Of a stretch of 64,000 nt of DNA, positions 11,165 to 18,900 are shown in pieces. Each line of letters begins with the position of its first letter. Position 1 is the stretch's first letter. A program made the translations under genes and the position numbers. Origin of the DNA: Holophagae bacterium (GTDB lineage Bacteria; Acidobacteriota; Holophagae; Acanthopleuribacterales; Acanthopleuribacteraceae). The notes below the pieces were generated by a model. It was not told the origin of the DNA and searched no databases. It saw nothing but the letters and a program-made list of their open reading frames with translations. The DNA lies in the NCBI GenBank assembly GCA_029263455.1, contig JAJCXM010000032.1, forward strand, positions 62,001 through 126,000, in the 5' to 3' direction.

Positions 11165-13300
11165 TTACGGGCTAAAGACTAGGACATAGCCCTTACTCGT
11201 GCCCACGTAGAGCCTGCCTTGTCGATATGCTAATCCCTTGGGCGATTTGATCTGCTGGCTGTCGCCGCTTTCTAGTTGAAATAGCCACTTTCTGGTTACC
11301 AAGTCAAAAATCTGGATTCTATGATTACCTGTGTCGGCGACAAATAAGAAACCGTCGCCGCTAATAGCGGCTTGAGGTTCATCAAATTCGGATTGTCCTG
11401 AGCCTTTCTCGCCTAGTACCCACCATCTCTTTCCTGATTGATTGATGCAAATGACGCGATGTTTACCCGACTCTGTGATAATCAAGTTCCCACGTTCGTC
11501 AAAGGCGATGGATGCAGGTCTTTTGATGTCTTCAATTACTTTGAGTAATTGGCCTTTCGCGTCGCATTGAACGACACGATCATTTTCTGTGTCGGCAATC
11601 CAGAAATTATCGTGTTTGTCAGCGATAACGGCTCGGCAGCCATCGAAATCAAGGTCAAGCACGCCCTTCTTGCCGAAACTAGAAACGAGTTTACCACCCG
11701 AGTCGTACATGCGAATAACCGAGTCACCTGGGTCAGGAACGAGAATGCGGCCTCTTGAGTCGATACCGATTGATCCTGGCTCGTCGGGCAAGTCAAATGA
11801 GCTTAATTTTTTTGCGAATGAAGAATCCCAAATTTCCACAGTTTCTGAACTCTTATTGGCGATATGCATTCGATCATTAACTAGCACCATGCCTTGTATG
11901 TGACCGATGTCTTTGGCCAGGTAGTTCAGAAATTTTGAAGGCGGCTTGGGACGCGCAGGTACAACCCTATCCGTCGTGTGTTCAACGGGGCGAGTAACTG
12001 CTTTTGTGACTTTCTTATGAGCAGGCTCACTATTTGGTTCAGTCTTACGATCAGCGGCTGGCTTAGATGCGTCCTGCTCAGACTCAAGCAGTGTTGATTG
12101 TGAGGCCGCTTCTAGTACGGTGTCACCGGACGAAAATGTTGCCGCTTGATTTTGGGCGCGATCTGCGTCGTCTAATTCCGAAGAGTTAGATTCGTGGATG
12201 CCGAGATTGATCTGGCTATCGGTCTCGATCGACTCGTTGATGGTATCAGCGCCTGACTGCTTCAGCATGTCAGGACTTTGGATCGTTTTTGGTTTGAAGA
12301 GAATCCATCCACATATAGCCAAAACAATGGCCGCCCCAAGGAAGAACCAAACCTGGGAGACTTTCTTTTGAGAGCTGGGCCGCATAGGGGCCTGAGCTTC
12401 ATGTATGGGAGGTTGTATGGGTGTTTTGTCTTCTAAAGCGGGCATGAGTTCCGTCATTTCCATGGACGGACTAGGCGCCTGTTGTTGGTTGAAGGCAATT
12501 TGCAATTCGTTGGCAAATGATTCGGCATTTGGAAAACGCTGCTCAGGGTCCTTGGCCAAGGCGATGGCCATCACTTGATCGATTGCGGCTGGCAATTGAC
12601 TAGAAAAATGAGTTGTAGATGGTGGCGCCTCGTGGACGATTTTGTAAGCCACAGTCGTGATTGAATCGCCAGGAAATGGTGTCTGCCCAGTGATCATTTC
12701 GTAAGTTAAAACGGCCAACGAGAATAAGTCACTGCGGTAGTCGACACGTTTGCCCGTGACCTGCTCGGGCGACATATAAAAAGGTGTCCCTAATACCATC
12801 CCTGTTGCTGTCATTTTGCCATCAATGAGTTTGGCGATACCAAAGTCGGTCAATTTCACTAATTTTTCGGGTCCAACAAGAAGAATATTGGCAGGTTTAA
12901 TATCGCGATGGATAACCTGATGCCGATGAGCGTGGTCTAAGGCCGCCGCCATGGCTTTGAGTATCCGAAGTACTTCGAGTAAATCCAGAGAACCCTTACG
13001 TTTTAATTCTTCGTGCAGGCTCAGGCCCTCCAGGAACTCCATGGCAATGAAATTTTCGCCCACATCAAAGATAGTGACGATATTAGGGTGCGAAAGTCGG
13101 CCAGCGATTTGAGCTTCTTGATGAAATCGTTCAACTAATTGCTTTTGTTCGTCTTCAGCGAACGCTTGTAAATTGAACGTCTTAAGAGCGACGGTACGGT
13201 CGATTTTTGGGTCATATCCTCGATAGACGGTACCCATCGCACCCTTGCCAACGATCGACTCAACCCGGTAACGACCGAGCCTGTCTGGAAGCTGAGCCAT
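11165..13300 (-). CDS. Transmembrane Ser/Thr protein kinase with NHL-repeat propeller
   Basis: About 711 residues from the ATG at 13300, which has a GAGGAG ribosome site; an in-frame start at 13360 is less likely. Order: PknB-type kinase domain with glycine loop 'VGKGAMGTVYRG', catalytic 'VIHRDIKPANIL' and 'LTDFGIAKL' (canonical RD kinase), activation segment 'MVLGTPFYMSPEQV'; a low-complexity linker; one membrane helix (VWFFLGAAIVLAICGWILF); a polar Ser/Glu/Lys-rich stalk; and a C-terminal six-bladed NHL-type beta-propeller with repeats such as 'IGIDSRGRILVPDPGDSVI' and 'FLFVADTGNHRIQIFD'. The propeller lies outside the membrane and probably binds a ligand or protein, with the kinase signalling inside. 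Substrates are unknown. Confidence 0.9.
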   Translation of the reverse strand: MAQLPDRLGRYRVESIVGKGAMGTVYRGYDPKIDRTVALKTFNLQAFAEDEQKQLVERFHQEAQIAGRLSHPNIVTIFDVGENFIAMEFLEGLSLHEELKRKGSLDLLEVLRILKAMAAALDHAHRHQVIHRDIKPANILLVGPEKLVKLTDFGIAKLIDGKMTATGMVLGTPFYMSPEQVTGKRVDYRSDLFSLAVLTYEMITGQTPFPGDSITTVAYKIVHEAPPSTTHFSSQLPAAIDQVMAIALAKDPEQRFPNAESFANELQIAFNQQQAPSPSMEMTELMPALEDKTPIQPPIHEAQAPMRPSSQKKVSQVWFFLGAAIVLAICGWILFKPKTIQSPDMLKQSGADTINESIETDSQINLGIHESNSSELDDADRAQNQAATFSSGDTVLEAASQSTLLESEQDASKPAADRKTEPNSEPAHKKVTKAVTRPVEHTTDRVVPARPKPPSKFLNYLAKDIGHIQGMVLVNDRMHIANKSSETVEIWDSSFAKKLSSFDLPDEPGSIGIDSRGRILVPDPGDSVIRMYDSGGKLVSSFGKKGVLDLDFDGCRAVIADKHDNFWIADTENDRVVQCDAKGQLLKVIEDIKRPASIAFDERGNLIITESGKHRVICINQSGKRWWVLGEKGSGQSEFDEPQAAISGDGFLFVADTGNHRIQIFDLVTRKWLFQLESGDSQQIKSPKGLAYRQGRLYVGTSKGYVLVFSP

Positions 13301-13324
13301 GGATTCTCCTCGGTGCATTTTGTT

Positions 13325-13337
13325 GAGTATTATACTC
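13325..13337. promoter_or_regulatory. -10 box inside a perfect palindrome upstream of the NHL kinase
   Basis: On the minus strand the sequence GAGTAT-A-ATACTC is a perfect 13-bp palindrome containing a consensus TATAAT (13329-13334). It would start transcription about 22 bp before the kinase ATG at 13300. No clear -35 lies at 17 bp; a TTGATA is 20 bp away. A protein bound here would block the promoter. Confidence 0.45.
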
Positions 13338-13619
13338 CTTAAGAATGGATCTCGTATCAATCAGGTCTCAACCTGTTCGAGCTCAACTTATGAATCCGTT
13401 AATTTCGATTCCGGCAGATCATGACATGGCTCACCACGCCTCTCTTACATGCAGGCGAAAACGACTAGGTGTGCATTTGTTTACCTGCCCATTTATCACA
13501 ATACAGTGACATAAGGCGCTCGACATTTTAGTCAATATGGTCGTGCGACGATGACCATCTAAATCGGCTCCGGGAAACATCAAAGTCGCGGCAAGTTTTA
13601 AAGGGCCAGGTTCTCGTTT
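13338..13619. other. Intergenic region between the NHL kinase and the psp/CULT operon
   Basis: About 280 bp without a gene. It holds the inverted repeat CAGGT-CTCA-ACCTG (13362-13375) near the kinase promoter and TCAC-N6-GTGA (13496-13509) some 110 bp before the plus-strand operon. I could not find a convincing sigma-70 or sigma-54 promoter for that operon. Confidence 0.35.
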
Positions 13620-14156
13620 ATGACAATTCGTGTCATGATGGACTTGAGAGAGGCTATGGTATTTCCCCGACTACTATTTTTGTTCGTTGCTGGCTTTGCG
13701 TATTGGCAATACGCGCACTACGACGCCTTGCTGCCAGATGTCGTGGCAACTCACTTTGACGGAAGCGGTGTGGCAAATGGTTGGCAATCCAGAGCCGGTT
13801 TTTGGCAGTTTTATGGCATCTTCTTGTTTTGTATCTGGTTCATCTTCTTTTTGATCGGGTGGTCTCTAAAGTTTATGCCGTCGTCGCTCATTAATGTTCC
13901 AAATCGTGACTATTGGTTGACTAATGAGAGGCGTGAGTCTTGCCTTGCTCGTGTTCGTTTTGCATTGGATTGGTATGGCGCGGCTACAGCGTTGTGGATC
14001 CTTTGGATGATGCAAAGTCTTATCCAATTGAACCTATCAGAGTCAACACAATTAGGTTCCATGTTTCTTATGCAAATCGTGCTGATGATTGTGGGTACAT
14101 GTATTTGGGTGGTGTGGTTACTTTCGATGTTTAGATTGCCTAATTCTGAGCGTTGA
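13620..14156 (+). CDS. DUF1648-like integral membrane protein
   Basis: 178 residues with four probable membrane helices. The segment after the first helix, 'LLPDVVATHFDGSGVANGWQSR', matches the DUF1648 signature (a Pro, a His and a 'G.ancW/gW' turn) found in SdpI-type and related small membrane proteins. Function is unknown; some relatives give immunity or sense envelope damage. The start could be 13620, 13635, 13638 or 13656; the last has a GAGAGG just upstream. It is the first gene of a compact operon and ends 23 bp before the yjfI-like gene, so an envelope-stress role is suggested by position only. Confidence 0.65.
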   Translation: MTIRVMMDLREAMVFPRLLFLFVAGFAYWQYAHYDALLPDVVATHFDGSGVANGWQSRAGFWQFYGIFLFCIWFIFFLIGWSLKFMPSSLINVPNRDYWLTNERRESCLARVRFALDWYGAATALWILWMMQSLIQLNLSESTQLGSMFLMQIVLMIVGTCIWVVWLLSMFRLPNSER

Positions 14157-14179
14157 AAGCTGGGGTCGGAGGTAAATTG

Positions 14180-14578
14180 ATGGCCAACTTTAGTACCGTA
14201 CGAGAATTTATGCAGCATATGGATGTGACAATTGTGCGAGAGGATAGGGACGAATGCGTTCTGGTTGTTGACGCACCTCAAAATGGGATCAGGAATTTGG
14301 TTGTGCTATGTGATCAACCCATTTTGATCATGCATCAAACGGTTGTGCCGGTTTCGGAGCCTTCAGTTGAGTTCTATGCGAGAATCCTGCAACTTAATGC
14401 GCAACTCGTACATGGTGCATTCGTGTTAGACGCTGACGCGGGGAGCATCAATTGGCGTCATACTCTGCAATTAGAAAATCTAGACTTTAACGAATTAGAT
14501 GCAGCGGTCAACGCGCTGTCCTTAGCCATGGCTGAATTTGCATTCGAATTTGTTAGCAGTTCCAGGCCAATAGAATAA
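14180..14578 (+). CDS. YjfI-like (DUF2170) protein, PspA partner
   Basis: 132 residues from the ATG at 14180, which has GGAGG 8 bp upstream; the in-frame TTG at 14153 lies inside the previous gene's end and lacks a site. The length and pattern match DUF2170/YjfI: an N-terminal two-strand block, 'VPVSEPSVEFYARILQLNAQ', then a strand ('INWRHTLQLENLDFNELD') and a final long helix. In Escherichia coli yjfI sits directly before the PspA paralogue yjfJ, just as this gene sits 8 bp before pspA. It may act as a chaperone-like binding partner of the PspA family (inference). Recognition is by pattern from memory. Confidence 0.7.
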   Translation: MANFSTVREFMQHMDVTIVREDRDECVLVVDAPQNGIRNLVVLCDQPILIMHQTVVPVSEPSVEFYARILQLNAQLVHGAFVLDADAGSINWRHTLQLENLDFNELDAAVNALSLAMAEFAFEFVSSSRPIE

Positions 14579-14586
14579 AGGTTTTT

Positions 14587-15303
14587 ATGGGTTTTTTTCA
14601 ACGAGTAATCAAAGCACTTCAACGTGAGCCTAAGTCCCTGCTTGACCGTTTCGATGAATCGATTCAAGAGACAGAGCAAGGTGTCGTGCGGCTGAAGAAG
14701 GAATTACAAACTACCATTGTAAGTTTGTCTGAAATTCGCGGTGTCGCAACTCGATTGCGACATCAAGTAGATGACGAAACGCAACGTACGCTCAGCTGCG
14801 AGCGGCGTGCGATGTTGGCTCTATCCGCCAGTGCAAAAGGTGATCTGAGCGAACAGGAAGCCGAAAGAAGAGCCTTGGATGCGCTTCGCGACCAGGAACT
14901 CGCGGCTCATCGCTTAATCACCCTAACAGACGATCTCAAAACACAAGATGCGCTTGCAGATCGTCTCAAAAACAAGGTCGATCGATTGCGCCATTCTATT
15001 CAACGGCTGGAAAATGAATTGGTGACGCTAAGAGCTCGGGCGCGCACCGCTCAATCAGTGCGTAAGATTAATCGACAACTCAGTCAAGTTGATAGTCACT
15101 CTACCATCGCGCTGTTAGAGAAAATGAAGCAACGGGTGATTGAAGAAGAGAGCCTTGCAGATGCCTACGGTGACCTTGCAGACATAGAAGCGGACGTGGA
15201 ACGGCGCATGACGGACATTGGCTCCGACGATAATCCGCCTTCTGCAGAAACGGCGTTGGACTTGCTAAAGCAACGAGTCAGCGACCAGGAAAAACAGCCT
15301 TGA
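14587..15303 (+). CDS. pspA: PspA/IM30 family envelope-stress protein
   Basis: 238 residues, almost wholly helical. The N-terminal amphipathic helix 'GFFQRVIKALQREP' is the membrane-anchoring helix of PspA/Vipp1, followed by a coiled-coil hairpin rich in Arg and Glu, including 'LENELVTLRARARTAQSVRKI', a region resembling the conserved 'K..YE.L..R...A' block. PspA binds stressed inner membrane and oligomerises like ESCRT-III to keep it sealed. No pspF/pspBC genes are present; instead it is preceded by a YjfI-like gene and followed, with a 4-bp TTGA overlap, by the CULT gene. Confidence 0.88.
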   Translation: MGFFQRVIKALQREPKSLLDRFDESIQETEQGVVRLKKELQTTIVSLSEIRGVATRLRHQVDDETQRTLSCERRAMLALSASAKGDLSEQEAERRALDALRDQELAAHRLITLTDDLKTQDALADRLKNKVDRLRHSIQRLENELVTLRARARTAQSVRKINRQLSQVDSHSTIALLEKMKQRVIEEESLADAYGDLADIEADVERRMTDIGSDDNPPSAETALDLLKQRVSDQEKQP

Positions 15304-15686
15304 GGTCCCAAGTCCTGCGTTTCAAGGAGCAGGAGATCGCGGCTGCTTCTTCAGCAAGGCGCGCAAATCGCGTCATTGTCGTATGTGCAACCTGCCGCCT
15401 TCAGCTCTGCTCATTTGAAGACCGTATTGAAGTTAAAGGAAGTCATGACCACACGTTTTCGAATCCAGTTGGTCGAATTTTCCCGCTTCGTTGCTTTAGC
15501 CGGGCCGCCGGCTGTCAACAAGTTGGCCTACCGACGCAGGAATTTACGTGGTTCCCTGGCTGTTCGTGGACCTTGTTGCATTGTCGCGGCTGTGTTAGTC
15601 ACCTGGGCTGGCACTATTCGGGGCCCTTAAACTTCGATGGTTTGATCACATTTCGCGTCAAGGACATGGAGGTTAAGAATGTCTGA
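15300..15686 (+). CDS. Bacterial CULT-domain (cereblon-type) protein
   Basis: 128 residues starting at a TTG that overlaps the pspA stop (TTGA), with AGGA about 10 bp upstream. It matches the single-domain bacterial cereblon homologue of Magnetospirillum (MsCI4) along the length: zinc ligands C29-x2-C32 and C95-x2-C98; 'HDHTFSNPVGRIF'; 'PTQEFTWFPGCSW'; 'SHLGWHY'; 'FDGLI'. The three tryptophans forming the ligand cage are W84, W90 and W104, with the same 6 and 14 residue spacing as MsCI4. This domain binds uridine, thalidomide-type drugs and, in eukaryotes, C-terminal cyclic imide degrons. No Lon or DDB1-binding domain is attached. The natural role in bacteria is not established; here it sits between PspA and an M20 hydrolase, overlapping the latter by 8 bp. 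Confidence 0.9.
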   Translation: MRSQVLRFKEQEIAAASSARRANRVIVVCATCRLQLCSFEDRIEVKGSHDHTFSNPVGRIFPLRCFSRAAGCQQVGLPTQEFTWFPGCSWTLLHCRGCVSHLGWHYSGPLNFDGLITFRVKDMEVKNV

Positions 15687-16674
15687 AGTGTTGGATTTGG
15701 CTGCAGAGCTGATTAATATTGAGTCGGTGACCGGCAATGAAAAAGGCATGTGCGATTGGCTCGAGAATTGGTGCCAACGGCAGGGCTTAGAAGTGGTTCG
15801 TCAGACGGTTGCGCCCGATCGCGATAATTTGTTTGCCAAAGTACCAGGGGTGAAAGCACGCTTGTTGTTTAATTCACATATTGATACGGTTCCGCCCTTT
15901 TTTGAGGCTCGTTTTGAGGGCGGTCGTTTAATGGGCCGCGGTGCCTGTGATACCAAAAGTCTCATCGCCGCCCAGTTACTAGCTGCTCGGCGTTTGCTGG
16001 CTGAAAAGAAGCCGATTGGCTTGCTCTATGTTGTCGGTGAGGAAGTGGATCATTGCGGGATGATCAAAGCAAACGAACTGGGATTGGACCCTGAATTCTT
16101 GATCGTGGGTGAGCCAACCGAGTCTAAGTTAGCTAATCGACAAAAGGGAATGCTTAAGATTCGACTTAAATGCCAAGGAAAAGCTGCACATTCAGGATAT
16201 CCAGAATTAGGCGTGTCAGCCATTACTTTGATGTTGGATGTTCTGGCCGACCTAAACGGGATCGCGTGGCCAAACGACGAAACGCTGGGACAAACGACGA
16301 TGAATATTGGGGTTTTGAAAGGCGGGCGTGCTGCCAATGTCGTGCCTGACTATTGTGAAGCCGAATGTTTGGTGAGGGTGGTCACCGATCACCGATCGAT
16401 TTTGGAAACGATCACAGAAACGATCGCTAACCGTGCAAAGATCGAGGTAGTGGCCGGCAATGACCCAACGGATTTATCGGTCGTTGACGGAATGGAGACA
16501 AGTGTTGTGTCCTTTAATACGGACATCCCTTATTTCAATTTCAGTGGCAAGGCTTTCTTGTGGGGAGCCGGTTCGATTCTGGACGCACATACTGACCATG
16601 AATTTATAGAAACCAGCGATTTGGAACATGCCGTAACGGTATACGAACAATTGGCGCGCCAACTATTGGCATAA
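15679..16674 (+). CDS. M20-family metallohydrolase (ArgE/DapE-like deacylase)
   Basis: 331 residues of the M20 peptidase/deacylase family. The di-zinc site is visible in order: 'NSHIDTVPP' (His, Asp), 'GRGACDTKSL' (Asp), 'GEEVDHCGM' (catalytic Glu and metal Glu), 'VGEPTESKL' (metal ligand) and the C-terminal 'AHTDHEF' (His). The lid domain has 'GKAAHSGYPELG'. Relatives remove acetyl, succinyl or amino-acid groups from small amides such as N-acetyl-ornithine or -lysine. The gene overlaps the CULT gene by 8 bp and no arginine or lysine biosynthesis genes are near, so a salvage or damage-clearing role is conceivable. The substrate is not readable. Confidence 0.85.
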   Translation: MSEVLDLAAELINIESVTGNEKGMCDWLENWCQRQGLEVVRQTVAPDRDNLFAKVPGVKARLLFNSHIDTVPPFFEARFEGGRLMGRGACDTKSLIAAQLLAARRLLAEKKPIGLLYVVGEEVDHCGMIKANELGLDPEFLIVGEPTESKLANRQKGMLKIRLKCQGKAAHSGYPELGVSAITLMLDVLADLNGIAWPNDETLGQTTMNIGVLKGGRAANVVPDYCEAECLVRVVTDHRSILETITETIANRAKIEVVAGNDPTDLSVVDGMETSVVSFNTDIPYFNFSGKAFLWGAGSILDAHTDHEFIETSDLEHAVTVYEQLARQLLA

Positions 16675-16690: not shown

Positions 16691-17263
16691 TTGAATTCTA
16701 GCCGCGACTCACTTGCATCAACGTCTGTCTTACTTGCAGCCGTTCAAAACGGCGATGAGTCTGCCCGCAATATGCTGTTTGAACGATATCTGCCCATCAT
16801 GCAGAAATGGGCCCATGGTCGTCTGCCAAGATATGCACGTCATACATTAGATACGGATGATCTTGTGCAGGTTTGCCTGTTTCGGGCGTTAAACCATTTA
16901 GAAGGGTTTGAACAGCATAGGGAAGGTGCCTTTCTTGCCTATCTTCGTCAAATACTTTTGAATTCTATCCGCGACGAAATTCGGCGGACCGTACGTCGGC
17001 CCGATGGCGAACGGTTTGAGACCGAAGACGAAATCCCGAGTTTGGTCGAGCAGTCAGTGGGGAAGGAAACAGTCATGGCATATGAGGCGGCCCTTGCAGA
17101 ATTGTCACCGGCACAGCGAGAAGCTGTCGTTTTGAGAATAGAGTTTGGCTTTAGTTTTCCCGAAATAGCTACGGCTATGAACAAGCCCTCGGCTAACGCC
17201 GCGCGAATGATGGTCAGTCGCGCACTTGTAGAGTTAGCCCAAGGGATGGGCGGGCGGCCATGA
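16691..17263 (+). CDS. ECF-type RNA polymerase sigma factor
   Basis: 190 residues. Region 2 includes 'DTDDLVQVCLFRALNHLEGF' and 'FLAYLRQILLNSIRDEIRR'; region 4 is 'LAELSPAQREAVVLRIEFG' followed by a helix-turn-helix 'FSFPEIATAMNKPSANAARM'. The start is TTG at 16691, with GGAG about 11 bp upstream, 16 bp after the M20 gene. Its stop overlaps the next gene, a membrane Ser/Thr kinase, by 4 bp. ECF factors coupled to kinases are controlled by phosphorylation instead of an anti-sigma factor in known cases (ECF43-like groups), and the same is likely here (inference). Confidence 0.88.
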   Translation: MNSSRDSLASTSVLLAAVQNGDESARNMLFERYLPIMQKWAHGRLPRYARHTLDTDDLVQVCLFRALNHLEGFEQHREGAFLAYLRQILLNSIRDEIRRTVRRPDGERFETEDEIPSLVEQSVGKETVMAYEAALAELSPAQREAVVLRIEFGFSFPEIATAMNKPSANAARMMVSRALVELAQGMGGRP

Positions 17264-18900
17264 CCCAAGAACTTGACACCTTAAGCAGAGCGGCTACGTC
17301 GGTGGCAGATTTTGATCTGTTCGATGCACATGACCCATCTGAGGCCGACCCACACGTCCGGAAAACCATCGAGAATCTGCGCGTCGTTTCAAGGTTGGCA
17401 GAAGCATATCGACAGGTAAGTCGATATCACAAACGGGCGCCAGGGCCAGTACCGCAATTTATGTGGGGCGATCTTGAAGTGTACGAAAAGATAGGTGAAG
17501 GGGCCTTTGCTGAGGTGTTTAGAGCGTTTGATCCGAAGCTGTCTCGAGATGTGGCATTGAAACTCTTAAAGCCATCAGCTGGCAGTGAAAATCGACAACG
17601 GCGATTTATCGAAGAAGCTCGTTTATTAGCAAAAATAAGGCATCCTAATGTACTGACTATCTTTGGTGTTGACGTACACGATGGTCGCGCAGGTTTATGG
17701 GCCGACCTTTTGGATGGTGTGACGCTCGAAGAGTGGGTCACAGAGAACGGACAGTTAGGTCCACAGGAGGCGGCCGTAATTGGCATGCACATGTGCCGCG
17801 CCTTAGCTGCAGTACACCGTTCTGGTCTAATTCACGGCGACATAAAACCGGCAAATATCATCCGTGAAAAGGGTGGTCGAATTGTGCTACTCGATTTTGG
17901 GACAGTAAGAGAGATTCCGCATCCGGACGAGCCAGTTTCTATACCCATTGGAACGCCGTTAACTATGGCACCAGAAGTATTGCTAGGCGATCATCCAACA
18001 CCACAATCCGATGTTTATTCACTTGGCGTCGTTCTTTATTGGATGGTGGCAGGTCGATATCCCATCGAAGCTGAGCGTCTGGATCAACTAATTGATAAAC
18101 ACCGTTCTTTTAAACGCAACAGAATGATTGAGTCCCGGCCAGAAATGCCTCGGGGTTTTATCGAAGTCGTTGATCGAGCGTTGGAATCTGATGCCAACAG
18201 CCGAACGGCCAGTCCGGGTGAATTTGAAGAAGAATTGGCACAATTTGTCGGCGAAAAACCGACGCAACTTCCGTTGCCGTGGCCTTGGAAAAAAACGGGC
18301 GCATTAACTTTAGTGGCAGCATTGGCCGTCTTTTTTCTGTGGGCTGCGCTGAAGACGCCTGCAGCTATGTCATTAGATGCCCAATTGGTGTGTACTAGAA
18401 TTGGTGAATCGATTCTGCTGCCAACGCGGGGGACTGTCCACTTGGGTGACCAGCTGCATATGGAATTCATGGCCGATCGAGAGACGTATGTGTTTGTATT
18501 TAACCAAGACGATCTGGGCGCATTTCATGTTCTGTTTCCAATTGAATCGTCGGGTCTCCAGAATCCGTTACCGGCTAATCAACGACATTATCTGCCTGGT
18601 AAAGTTGACGGAGAATGGATGGATTGGCAGGTAACCTCATTGGCGGGTTATGAGGATTTCCTGTTGGTGGCCACAGATGTGCCCGTACCGGCGTTAGCGG
18701 ATTTGATACAACGCCATCATGTTGCCAATCAACAGACTGTTGCCATGAATACGCGCGGTGTAGGTGGCTTAACGGCTGCTGCTTTGCCTGTCGACCTGCC
18801 ACAACAATTAAGCGATGTGAAAAATTTGGTGGATTCTCTTATGCAGCGTGGGGTTTTGGTCGAGACGGTAGAGTACCGGCTAACGAGTTCGATGGACTAA
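17260..18900 (+). CDS. Transmembrane Ser/Thr kinase with DUF4384-like C-terminal domain
   Basis: 546 residues. A 70-residue N-terminal extension precedes the kinase: glycine loop 'IGEGAFAEVFRAF', lysine 'DVALKLLK', catalytic loop 'LIHGDIKPANII' and 'LLDFGTVREI', activation segment 'PIGTPLTMAPEVLL'. The catalytic loop has HGD in place of HRD, a non-RD kinase, so activation-loop phosphorylation may not control it. One membrane helix (ALTLVAALAVFFLWAAL, about 350) is followed by about 180 residues outside the membrane with 'GDQLHMEFMADRETYVFVFNQDDLG' spacing, resembling DUF4384, a domain often found on kinases and caspase-like proteins. It overlaps the sigma-factor gene by 4 bp and is last in the seven-gene operon. 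Confidence 0.87.
   Translation: MTQELDTLSRAATSVADFDLFDAHDPSEADPHVRKTIENLRVVSRLAEAYRQVSRYHKRAPGPVPQFMWGDLEVYEKIGEGAFAEVFRAFDPKLSRDVALKLLKPSAGSENRQRRFIEEARLLAKIRHPNVLTIFGVDVHDGRAGLWADLLDGVTLEEWVTENGQLGPQEAAVIGMHMCRALAAVHRSGLIHGDIKPANIIREKGGRIVLLDFGTVREIPHPDEPVSIPIGTPLTMAPEVLLGDHPTPQSDVYSLGVVLYWMVAGRYPIEAERLDQLIDKHRSFKRNRMIESRPEMPRGFIEVVDRALESDANSRTASPGEFEEELAQFVGEKPTQLPLPWPWKKTGALTLVAALAVFFLWAALKTPAAMSLDAQLVCTRIGESILLPTRGTVHLGDQLHMEFMADRETYVFVFNQDDLGAFHVLFPIESSGLQNPLPANQRHYLPGKVDGEWMDWQVTSLAGYEDFLLVATDVPVPALADLIQRHHVANQQTVAMNTRGVGGLTAAALPVDLPQQLSDVKNLVDSLMQRGVLVETVEYRLTSSMD

What the first reader, a model, noticed from the sequence alone, without database searches (positions are those of the whole stretch)
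15300..15686. Intact tri-tryptophan cage and zinc site in the CULT protein
W84, W90 and W104 have the 6 and 14 residue spacing of the MsCI4 pocket, and C29/C32/C95/C98 form the zinc site, so ligand binding should be retained. The protein starts at a TTG fused by TTGA to the pspA stop, tying its amount to PspA.
Basis: partly seen in the sequence, partly recalled or inferred. Interest (0 to 1): 0.6.

Follow-up and report, generated by a model that had tools for sequence, protein, structure and literature searches.

The report
Ordinary bacterial cereblon-like (CULT) binding protein
An Acidobacteriota genome carries a small protein with the same zinc site and three-tryptophan pocket that binds thalidomide in human cereblon; it is a fast-changing member of a known bacterial family, and its tie to a neighbouring membrane-stress gene looks like a local accident of gene order.

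Summary
ORF 15300-15686 (+, 128 aa, TTG start) is a single-domain CULT protein. C29/C32/C95/C98 and W84/W90/W104 align with the MsCI4 zinc site and tri-Trp cage (phmmer E 1.8e-21), and an AlphaFold2 model (pLDDT 90.7) matches thalidomide-bound MsCI4 at Z 19.5, 1.0 A over 101 residues. Two parts of the interpretation need correction. (1) 'Intact' is too strong: the tyrosine that buttresses the cage (MsCI4 Y83, human Y384, whose Ala mutant is described as binding-deficient) is C88, here and in the sister species. Cys recurs there in other bacterial CULTs, so loss of binding does not follow; affinity is untested. (2) The PspA link is not conserved. The CesT/Tir-PspA dyad is absent from the sister species, where CULT abuts DUF1648, and lies away from CULT in three other family genomes. 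The 8-bp overlap with a downstream M20 hydrolase is shared only within the genus. No neighbour is general among 84 bacterial CULT loci. CULT is in 7 of 7 held family genomes and 12 of 396 Acidobacteriota. Within the genus it diverges fast (40% identity; M20 69%) yet keeps cage and zinc site. Verdict: new member of a known kind; natural ligand unknown.

The parts
15300..15686 (+). single-domain CULT protein, 128 aa, TTG start
   Evidence: phmmer to MsCI4 E 1.8e-21; Pfam Yippee-Mis18 PF03226 25.8 bits, just under its 26.6 cut-off
15384..15395 (+). zinc knuckle 1, C29-x2-C32
   Evidence: position by translation; both Cys in 84 of 84 alignment rows
15462..15473 (+). hairpin tip N55-P-x-G58
   Evidence: N, P, G invariant in 84 of 84 rows; NPxG motif described in PMC4449219
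15549..15569 (+). cage segment W84-F-P-G-C88-S-W90, with Cys in place of the buttressing Tyr
   Evidence: alignment to MsCI4; column 88 is Y 51, F 26, C 7 of 84 rows
15582..15593 (+). zinc knuckle 2, C95-x2-C98
   Evidence: 84 of 84 rows
15609..15617 (+). third cage Trp W104 and cage-floor Y106 (MsCI4 Y101)
   Evidence: W104 in 84 of 84 rows; column 106 is F 52, Y 32; role of Y101 from PMC8900816 passages
14587..15303 (+). PspA/IM30-family protein, upstream neighbour, 4-nt overlap with CULT
   Evidence: PF04012 68.6 bits; not next to CULT in the other 6 family genomes
14153..14578 (+). CesT/Tir-like chaperone (PF22550), forms a dyad with the PspA-family gene
   Evidence: dyad described in PMC11237479 (passages)
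13620..14156 (+). DUF1648 protein, first gene of the run; directly abuts CULT in the sister species
15679..16674 (+). M20 hydrolase, ArgE/DapE-like, overlaps CULT by 8 bp
   Evidence: overlap shared with sister species; no curated cut-off met among the 25 NCBIfam families shown

Best explanation
This is a single-domain bacterial CULT protein whose aromatic cage binds a small cyclic imide or pyrimidine-like group, either free or at the end of a damaged peptide. Shown here: family membership, zinc site, cage residues, predicted fold, presence in every held genome of its family, and retention of cage and zinc site despite fast divergence. Inferred: that it binds ligands at all, that it is cytosolic, that it orders on binding as MsCI4 does, that the ligand is a cyclic imide, and that it acts as a binder or sensor rather than an enzyme. 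Its expression is set by a tightly packed run of genes that differs between sister species; a special tie to PspA is unlikely.
For: Sequence and fold: phmmer E 1.8e-21 to MsCI4; AF2 pLDDT 90.7, pTM 0.78; Foldseek top hits are MsCI4 chains; VIA Z 19.5, rmsd 1.0 over 101 residues to 4v2y_B. Selection on the pocket: between the window and sister G001 CULTs 40 of 106 aligned residues match, yet all 7 cage and zinc residues do (crude P 0.0008). CULT is in 7 of 7 family genomes and 0 of 86 genomes of other families in the class. Ligand class: MsCI4 binds glutarimides through Trp79/85/99 and the backbone of Phe77 and Trp79 (PMC8900816 passages) and uracil/uridine (PMC4287342 section 9); human CRBN binds C-terminal cyclic imides (PMC11974815 passages).
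Against: C88 replaces the Tyr whose Ala mutant in human CRBN is described as binding-deficient. CULT in this genus has diverged more than CULTs of the sister genera at similar M20 distance, which could mean relaxed or changed function. AF2 may reproduce the ligand-bound state because of its training structures, so the match shows no binding. No conserved neighbour points to a pathway. PIMT, the enzyme that makes C-terminal cyclic imides in human cells, is widespread in the phylum and so gives no support.
Confidence: 0.7

Rival explanations
1. The CULT works with the overlapping M20 hydrolase: the cage captures imide-ended peptides or small imides or their derivatives, and the M20 enzyme hydrolyses them.
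For: 8-bp overlap with M20 kept in both held genomes of the genus, while the genes upstream of CULT changed.
Against: In the other four family genomes with a close M20 orthologue (58-63% identity to the window's) it lies away from CULT; G002 has CULT but only a distant M20 match (29%). Two genomes are few. The M20 may simply be an ArgE-type enzyme (TIGR01892 145 bits, below its 298 cut-off).
Confidence: 0.08
2. The CULT is an envelope-stress partner of the PspA-family protein, its amount set by translational coupling at TTGA.
For: 4-nt overlap with the PspA-family stop.
Against: Seen in 1 of 7 family genomes. The dyad is missing from the sister species and lies elsewhere in G003, G005 and G006; in the sister CULT abuts DUF1648.
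Confidence: 0.05
3. In this genus the pocket has lost imide binding (Tyr to Cys, fast evolution) and the domain keeps the Trp and Cys residues for fold stability or for another ligand.
For: C88 in both held genus members; raised divergence; human Y384A is described as binding-deficient.
Against: Cys recurs at this site in six other loci of other lineages (L024, L031, L050, L055, L087, L126), about 6 changes on a weak tree; 26 of 84 rows have Phe there. All three cage Trp and the NPxG tip are kept.
Confidence: 0.15

Closest known systems
MsCI4 (MGR_0879, cereblon isoform 4, Magnetospirillum gryphiswaldense; PDB 4v2y, 5amh)
   Same: Single-domain bacterial CULT; two CxxC; three Trp at identical spacing; NPxG tip; Phe two before the first cage Trp; Tyr on the cage floor (Y106 = Y101); same predicted fold
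   Different: 38-41% identity in structural alignments; Y83 is C88; extra C37; N-terminal segment 2-24 predicted helical at low confidence
Human cereblon thalidomide-binding domain
   Same: Fold (Z about 17, 1.2-2.0 A over 98-105 residues in several chains), zinc site, W380/W386/W400
   Different: No LON domain, no DDB1 link; about 24% identity; Y384 replaced by Cys
Yippee/Mis18 (PF03226)
   Same: Distant relative with the two-CxxC zinc site; matched at 25.8 bits, below the 26.6 cut-off
   Different: CULT is recognised by the tri-Trp cage, as set out in PMC4287342 (passages)
CesT/Tir-PspA dyad (PMC11237479)
   Same: The two genes upstream of CULT have this make-up
   Different: CULT is not named in the passages of that paper that I read (terms CesT, YbjN, chaperone); the adjacency to CULT is local to this genome among the 7 family genomes

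Membership tests
CULT domain family (single-domain bacterial group) | two CxxC zinc motifs | tested here: met
   C29/C32/C95/C98; 84 of 84 alignment rows
CULT domain family (single-domain bacterial group) | three cage Trp with spacing 6 and 14 | tested here: met
   W84/W90/W104, in register with MsCI4
CULT domain family (single-domain bacterial group) | NPxG at the hairpin tip | tested here: met
   N55-P56-V57-G58
CULT domain family (single-domain bacterial group) | beta-tent fold like solved CULT domains | tested here: met
   predicted model only: Z 19.5, 1.0 A over 101 residues to 4v2y_B
CULT domain family (single-domain bacterial group) | protein consists of the CULT domain alone | tested here: met
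   128 aa; match spans 26-120
Imide-binding CULT as proven for MsCI4 and human CRBN | binding of thalidomide, glutarimide or uracil | not testable with these tools
   needs purified protein
Imide-binding CULT as proven for MsCI4 and human CRBN | aromatic buttress at MsCI4 Y83/human Y384 (supports the cage; not defining for CULT as a whole) | tested here: not met
   C88; the column holds Y 51, F 26, C 7 of 84 rows. So it is filed as a CULT, not as a proven imide binder
Cereblon | LON domain N-terminal to CULT | tested here: not met
   128-aa ORF without room for it
PspA equivalog (TIGR02977), for the upstream gene | score over the curated cut-off | tested here: not met
   26 bits vs 242.95; superfamily PF04012 met

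The most novel reading that the evidence does not exclude
In this genus the thalidomide-type pocket has become redox-gated: the buttressing Tyr and a commonly conserved Thr are both replaced by Cys (C88 and C37), a pair present together only in the two genus members among 84 aligned CULTs, so that oxidation would lock or release the folding-upon-binding cage, which delivers imide-ended, damaged peptides to the overlapping M20 hydrolase.
Probability: 0.03. Interest if true: 0.75.

Novelty: new member of a known kind. Interest (0 to 1): 0.28.

Why it matters
Natural ligands and partners of bacterial CULT proteins are open questions. This case adds two constraints: all seven cage and zinc residues persist in a genus where the rest of the protein changes quickly, and the gene's neighbours change between sister species, so gene context (PspA included) is a poor guide. 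The natural Cys at the site of a well-known non-binding human mutation also offers a simple test of whether that tyrosine is needed for imide binding.

Tried and rejected
Conserved partner gene: clustering of neighbours within four genes in 84 loci gave no general partner; the widest cluster (10 loci) is histidine-kinase-like and at scattered offsets, the tightest is uroporphyrinogen-III methyltransferase/synthase just upstream in 7 loci, mostly Desulfobulbales relatives. Bacterial LON-CULT fusion: two Acidobacteriota open frames of 297 and 301 aa (L121, L124) looked like candidates, but their N-terminal parts read as low-complexity frame with no early start codon; by eye only, not searched against Pfam. 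PIMT association as a test of the cyclic-imide idea: 298 of 396 Acidobacteriota exceed the cut-off, so the strong hits in 11 of 12 CULT genomes (read off the table; G432 has only a weak one) say nothing, and family member G002 has CULT but only weak PIMT matches. Mobile origin: no CULT match in phages, plasmids or viral contigs. Arginine pathway as the role of M20: argB-like match under cut-off, no ArgJ; left open. Monophyly test of the family's CULTs did not finish. The gene tree rests on 115 columns and is weak; counts from it are rough.

Bias to note: the genome-contig scan used the single pattern [FW][TS]WF[PKA]G[YCF]xW, so invariance of W84, F85, G87 and W90 and the Y/F/C spectrum at 88 in the 84-row set are partly built in; W104 and the four Cys are not. 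298 loci matched, the best 80 were kept; four duplicates of family genomes (L020, L027, L029, L042) were dropped before counts on 84 rows. In the six-frame HMM search without that pattern one genome (G395) has His at the position and another (G305) Cys.

Full report
What is there. The ORF at 15300-15686 (+) reads as 128 residues from a TTG. Its only Trp residues are 84, 90 and 104; Cys are at 29, 32, 37, 65, 72, 88, 95 and 98. phmmer against solved structures gives MsCI4 (4v2y) at E 1.8e-21 over residues 26-120, followed by cereblon chains. Pfam gives Yippee-Mis18 at 25.8 bits, just under its cut-off of 26.6; NCBIfam has no match. With an alignment of 84 bacterial CULTs, AlphaFold2 gives pLDDT 90.7 and pTM 0.78. 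Foldseek's best hits are MsCI4 chains, and VIA-align gives Z 19.5 and 1.0 A over 101 residues to 4v2y_B, a thalidomide complex. I had no coordinates, so side-chain superposition of the three Trp was not done.

The pocket in detail. By the phmmer alignment (chain index one above paper numbering), W84/W90/W104 are MsCI4 W79/W85/W99; F82 is Phe77, E81 Glu76, P56 Pro51, V57 Ala52, and Y106 is Tyr101, which in MsCI4 gives a third hydrogen bond and higher affinity than Phe (PMC8900816 passages). One cage-supporting residue differs: MsCI4 Y83 is C88. PMC4449219 (passages) says that Y83 corresponds to human Y384, that Y384A is thalidomide-binding deficient, and that the tyrosine holds the second and third flexible regions together. 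PMC9217950 and PMC11203266 (passages) use the double mutant Y384A/W386A as a non-binding control. The sister species also has Cys here. In the 84-row alignment the column is Y 51, F 26, C 7; Cys rows include a gammaproteobacterium, Desulfobacterales/Desulfobulbus-type and Sandaracinaceae loci, about 6 changes on a weak tree. So Cys is a recurrent natural state, and loss of binding does not follow, but 'intact' overstates the case. C37, where 70 of 84 rows have Thr, is also Cys in both genus members; C37 and C88 occur together in those two rows only.

Is the pocket under selection? The window and sister (G001) CULTs share 40% identity while their M20 neighbours share 69%. Three pairs of other genera with M20 at 66-72% (G003 with G004, G005, G006) have CULT at 53-56%; two more pairs with M20 at 64-66% (G004 with G005, G006) have CULT at 45-49%. 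So CULT has diverged unusually in this genus. Even so all seven named zinc and cage residues are kept among 40 identities in 106 aligned positions (crude P 0.0008 if identities were spread at random; Trp and Cys are conserved residues in general, so this overstates the case somewhat).

Distribution. CULT was found in 7 of 7 family genomes, 0 of 86 genomes of other families of the class, and 1 of 7 others of the phylum; an HMM search found it in 12 of 396 Acidobacteriota. The genome-contig scan confirmed 298 relatives, among them Desulfobacterota-type, Spirochaetota, Nitrospirae, Riflebacteria, Aminicenantes and proteobacterial records in the 80 kept. PMC4287342 (passages) described the bacterial group mainly from delta-, with alpha- and gammaproteobacteria and a spirochete, so Acidobacteriota is an extension. 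One full-text search for cereblon with Acidobacteria found two papers; in the passages read of one (PMC13001092) the Acidobacteria mention concerns graspetide gene clusters, and the other was seen in the search listing only. Phage, plasmid and viral collections gave nothing.

The PspA link. The window order is DUF1648 (13620), CesT/Tir-like (14153), PspA-family (14587), CULT (15300), M20 hydrolase (15679), all on + with overlaps or short gaps. In the sister species the order Rrf2, kinase-NHL, DUF1648, CULT, M20, histidine kinase is kept on one contig (with other genes between Rrf2 and the kinase), but the CesT/Tir and PspA-family genes are missing; a possible CULT ATG starts on the last base of the DUF1648 stop (TGATG), and CULT overlaps M20 by 8 bp as in the window. 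No match to either dyad gene was found anywhere in G001, G002 or G004; G003, G005 and G006 have both genes side by side at places away from CULT. The dyad is a known unit (PMC11237479 passages). The simplest reading is a cassette gained or lost between DUF1648 and CULT; which of the two was not tested. The upstream protein fits PF04012 (68.6 bits) but not the PspA equivalog (26 vs 243 bits).

The M20 link. A good M20 orthologue (58-69% identity to the window's) is in G001 and G003-G006; it adjoins CULT only in G000 and G001; G002 has only a distant match. The enzyme scores best as ArgE/DapE but under every cut-off listed. The own genome has an argB-like match under cut-off and no ArgJ match, so an arginine role is possible and not shown.

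Context in other bacteria. Among 563 neighbours in 84 loci no family recurs generally; the tightest is uroporphyrinogen-III methyltransferase/synthase immediately upstream in 7 loci, with an eighth case, L071, where the same frame runs on into CULT.

How it most likely works. Established for relatives: MsCI4 binds glutarimides and uracil or uridine in the cage, and a third of the domain folds on binding; human cereblon binds C-terminal cyclic imides, which PCMT1 can make. Inferred for this protein: it binds a small imide-like group with affinity altered by C88, and acts as a binder or sensor without ubiquitin machinery. PIMT presence does not discriminate.

Verdict. A new member of a known kind, of modest interest.

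Noticed in passing
L022 4314-5870, and L051, L055, L056, L061, L073, L075 (gene just upstream of CULT); L071 4339-6294: In 7 of 84 CULT loci the gene immediately upstream, same strand, is a uroporphyrinogen-III C-methyltransferase/synthase (siroheme/haem route); in L071 the same frame runs on into CULT. UROD, another haem enzyme, is a reported CRBN substrate (PMC11974815 passages), possibly coincidence.
   Followed up: partly
15408-15410 (C37) and 15561-15563 (C88): A Cys pair present together only in the two members of this genus among 84 aligned CULTs; spatial distance not measured.
   Followed up: partly
14153-15303 and L009 6383-7257: The CesT/Tir-PspA dyad sits between DUF1648 and CULT here but is absent in the sister species: a small cassette gained or lost inside a packed run of genes.
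   Followed up: partly
14153-14206: The CesT/Tir-like ORF starts at a TTG overlapping DUF1648, but an in-frame ATG at 14180 may be the real start.
   Followed up: no
11165-13360 (-) and 16691-18900 (+): Two Ser/Thr kinases flank the CULT region, one with NHL repeats and one with a DUF4384 tail next to an ECF sigma factor.
   Followed up: no
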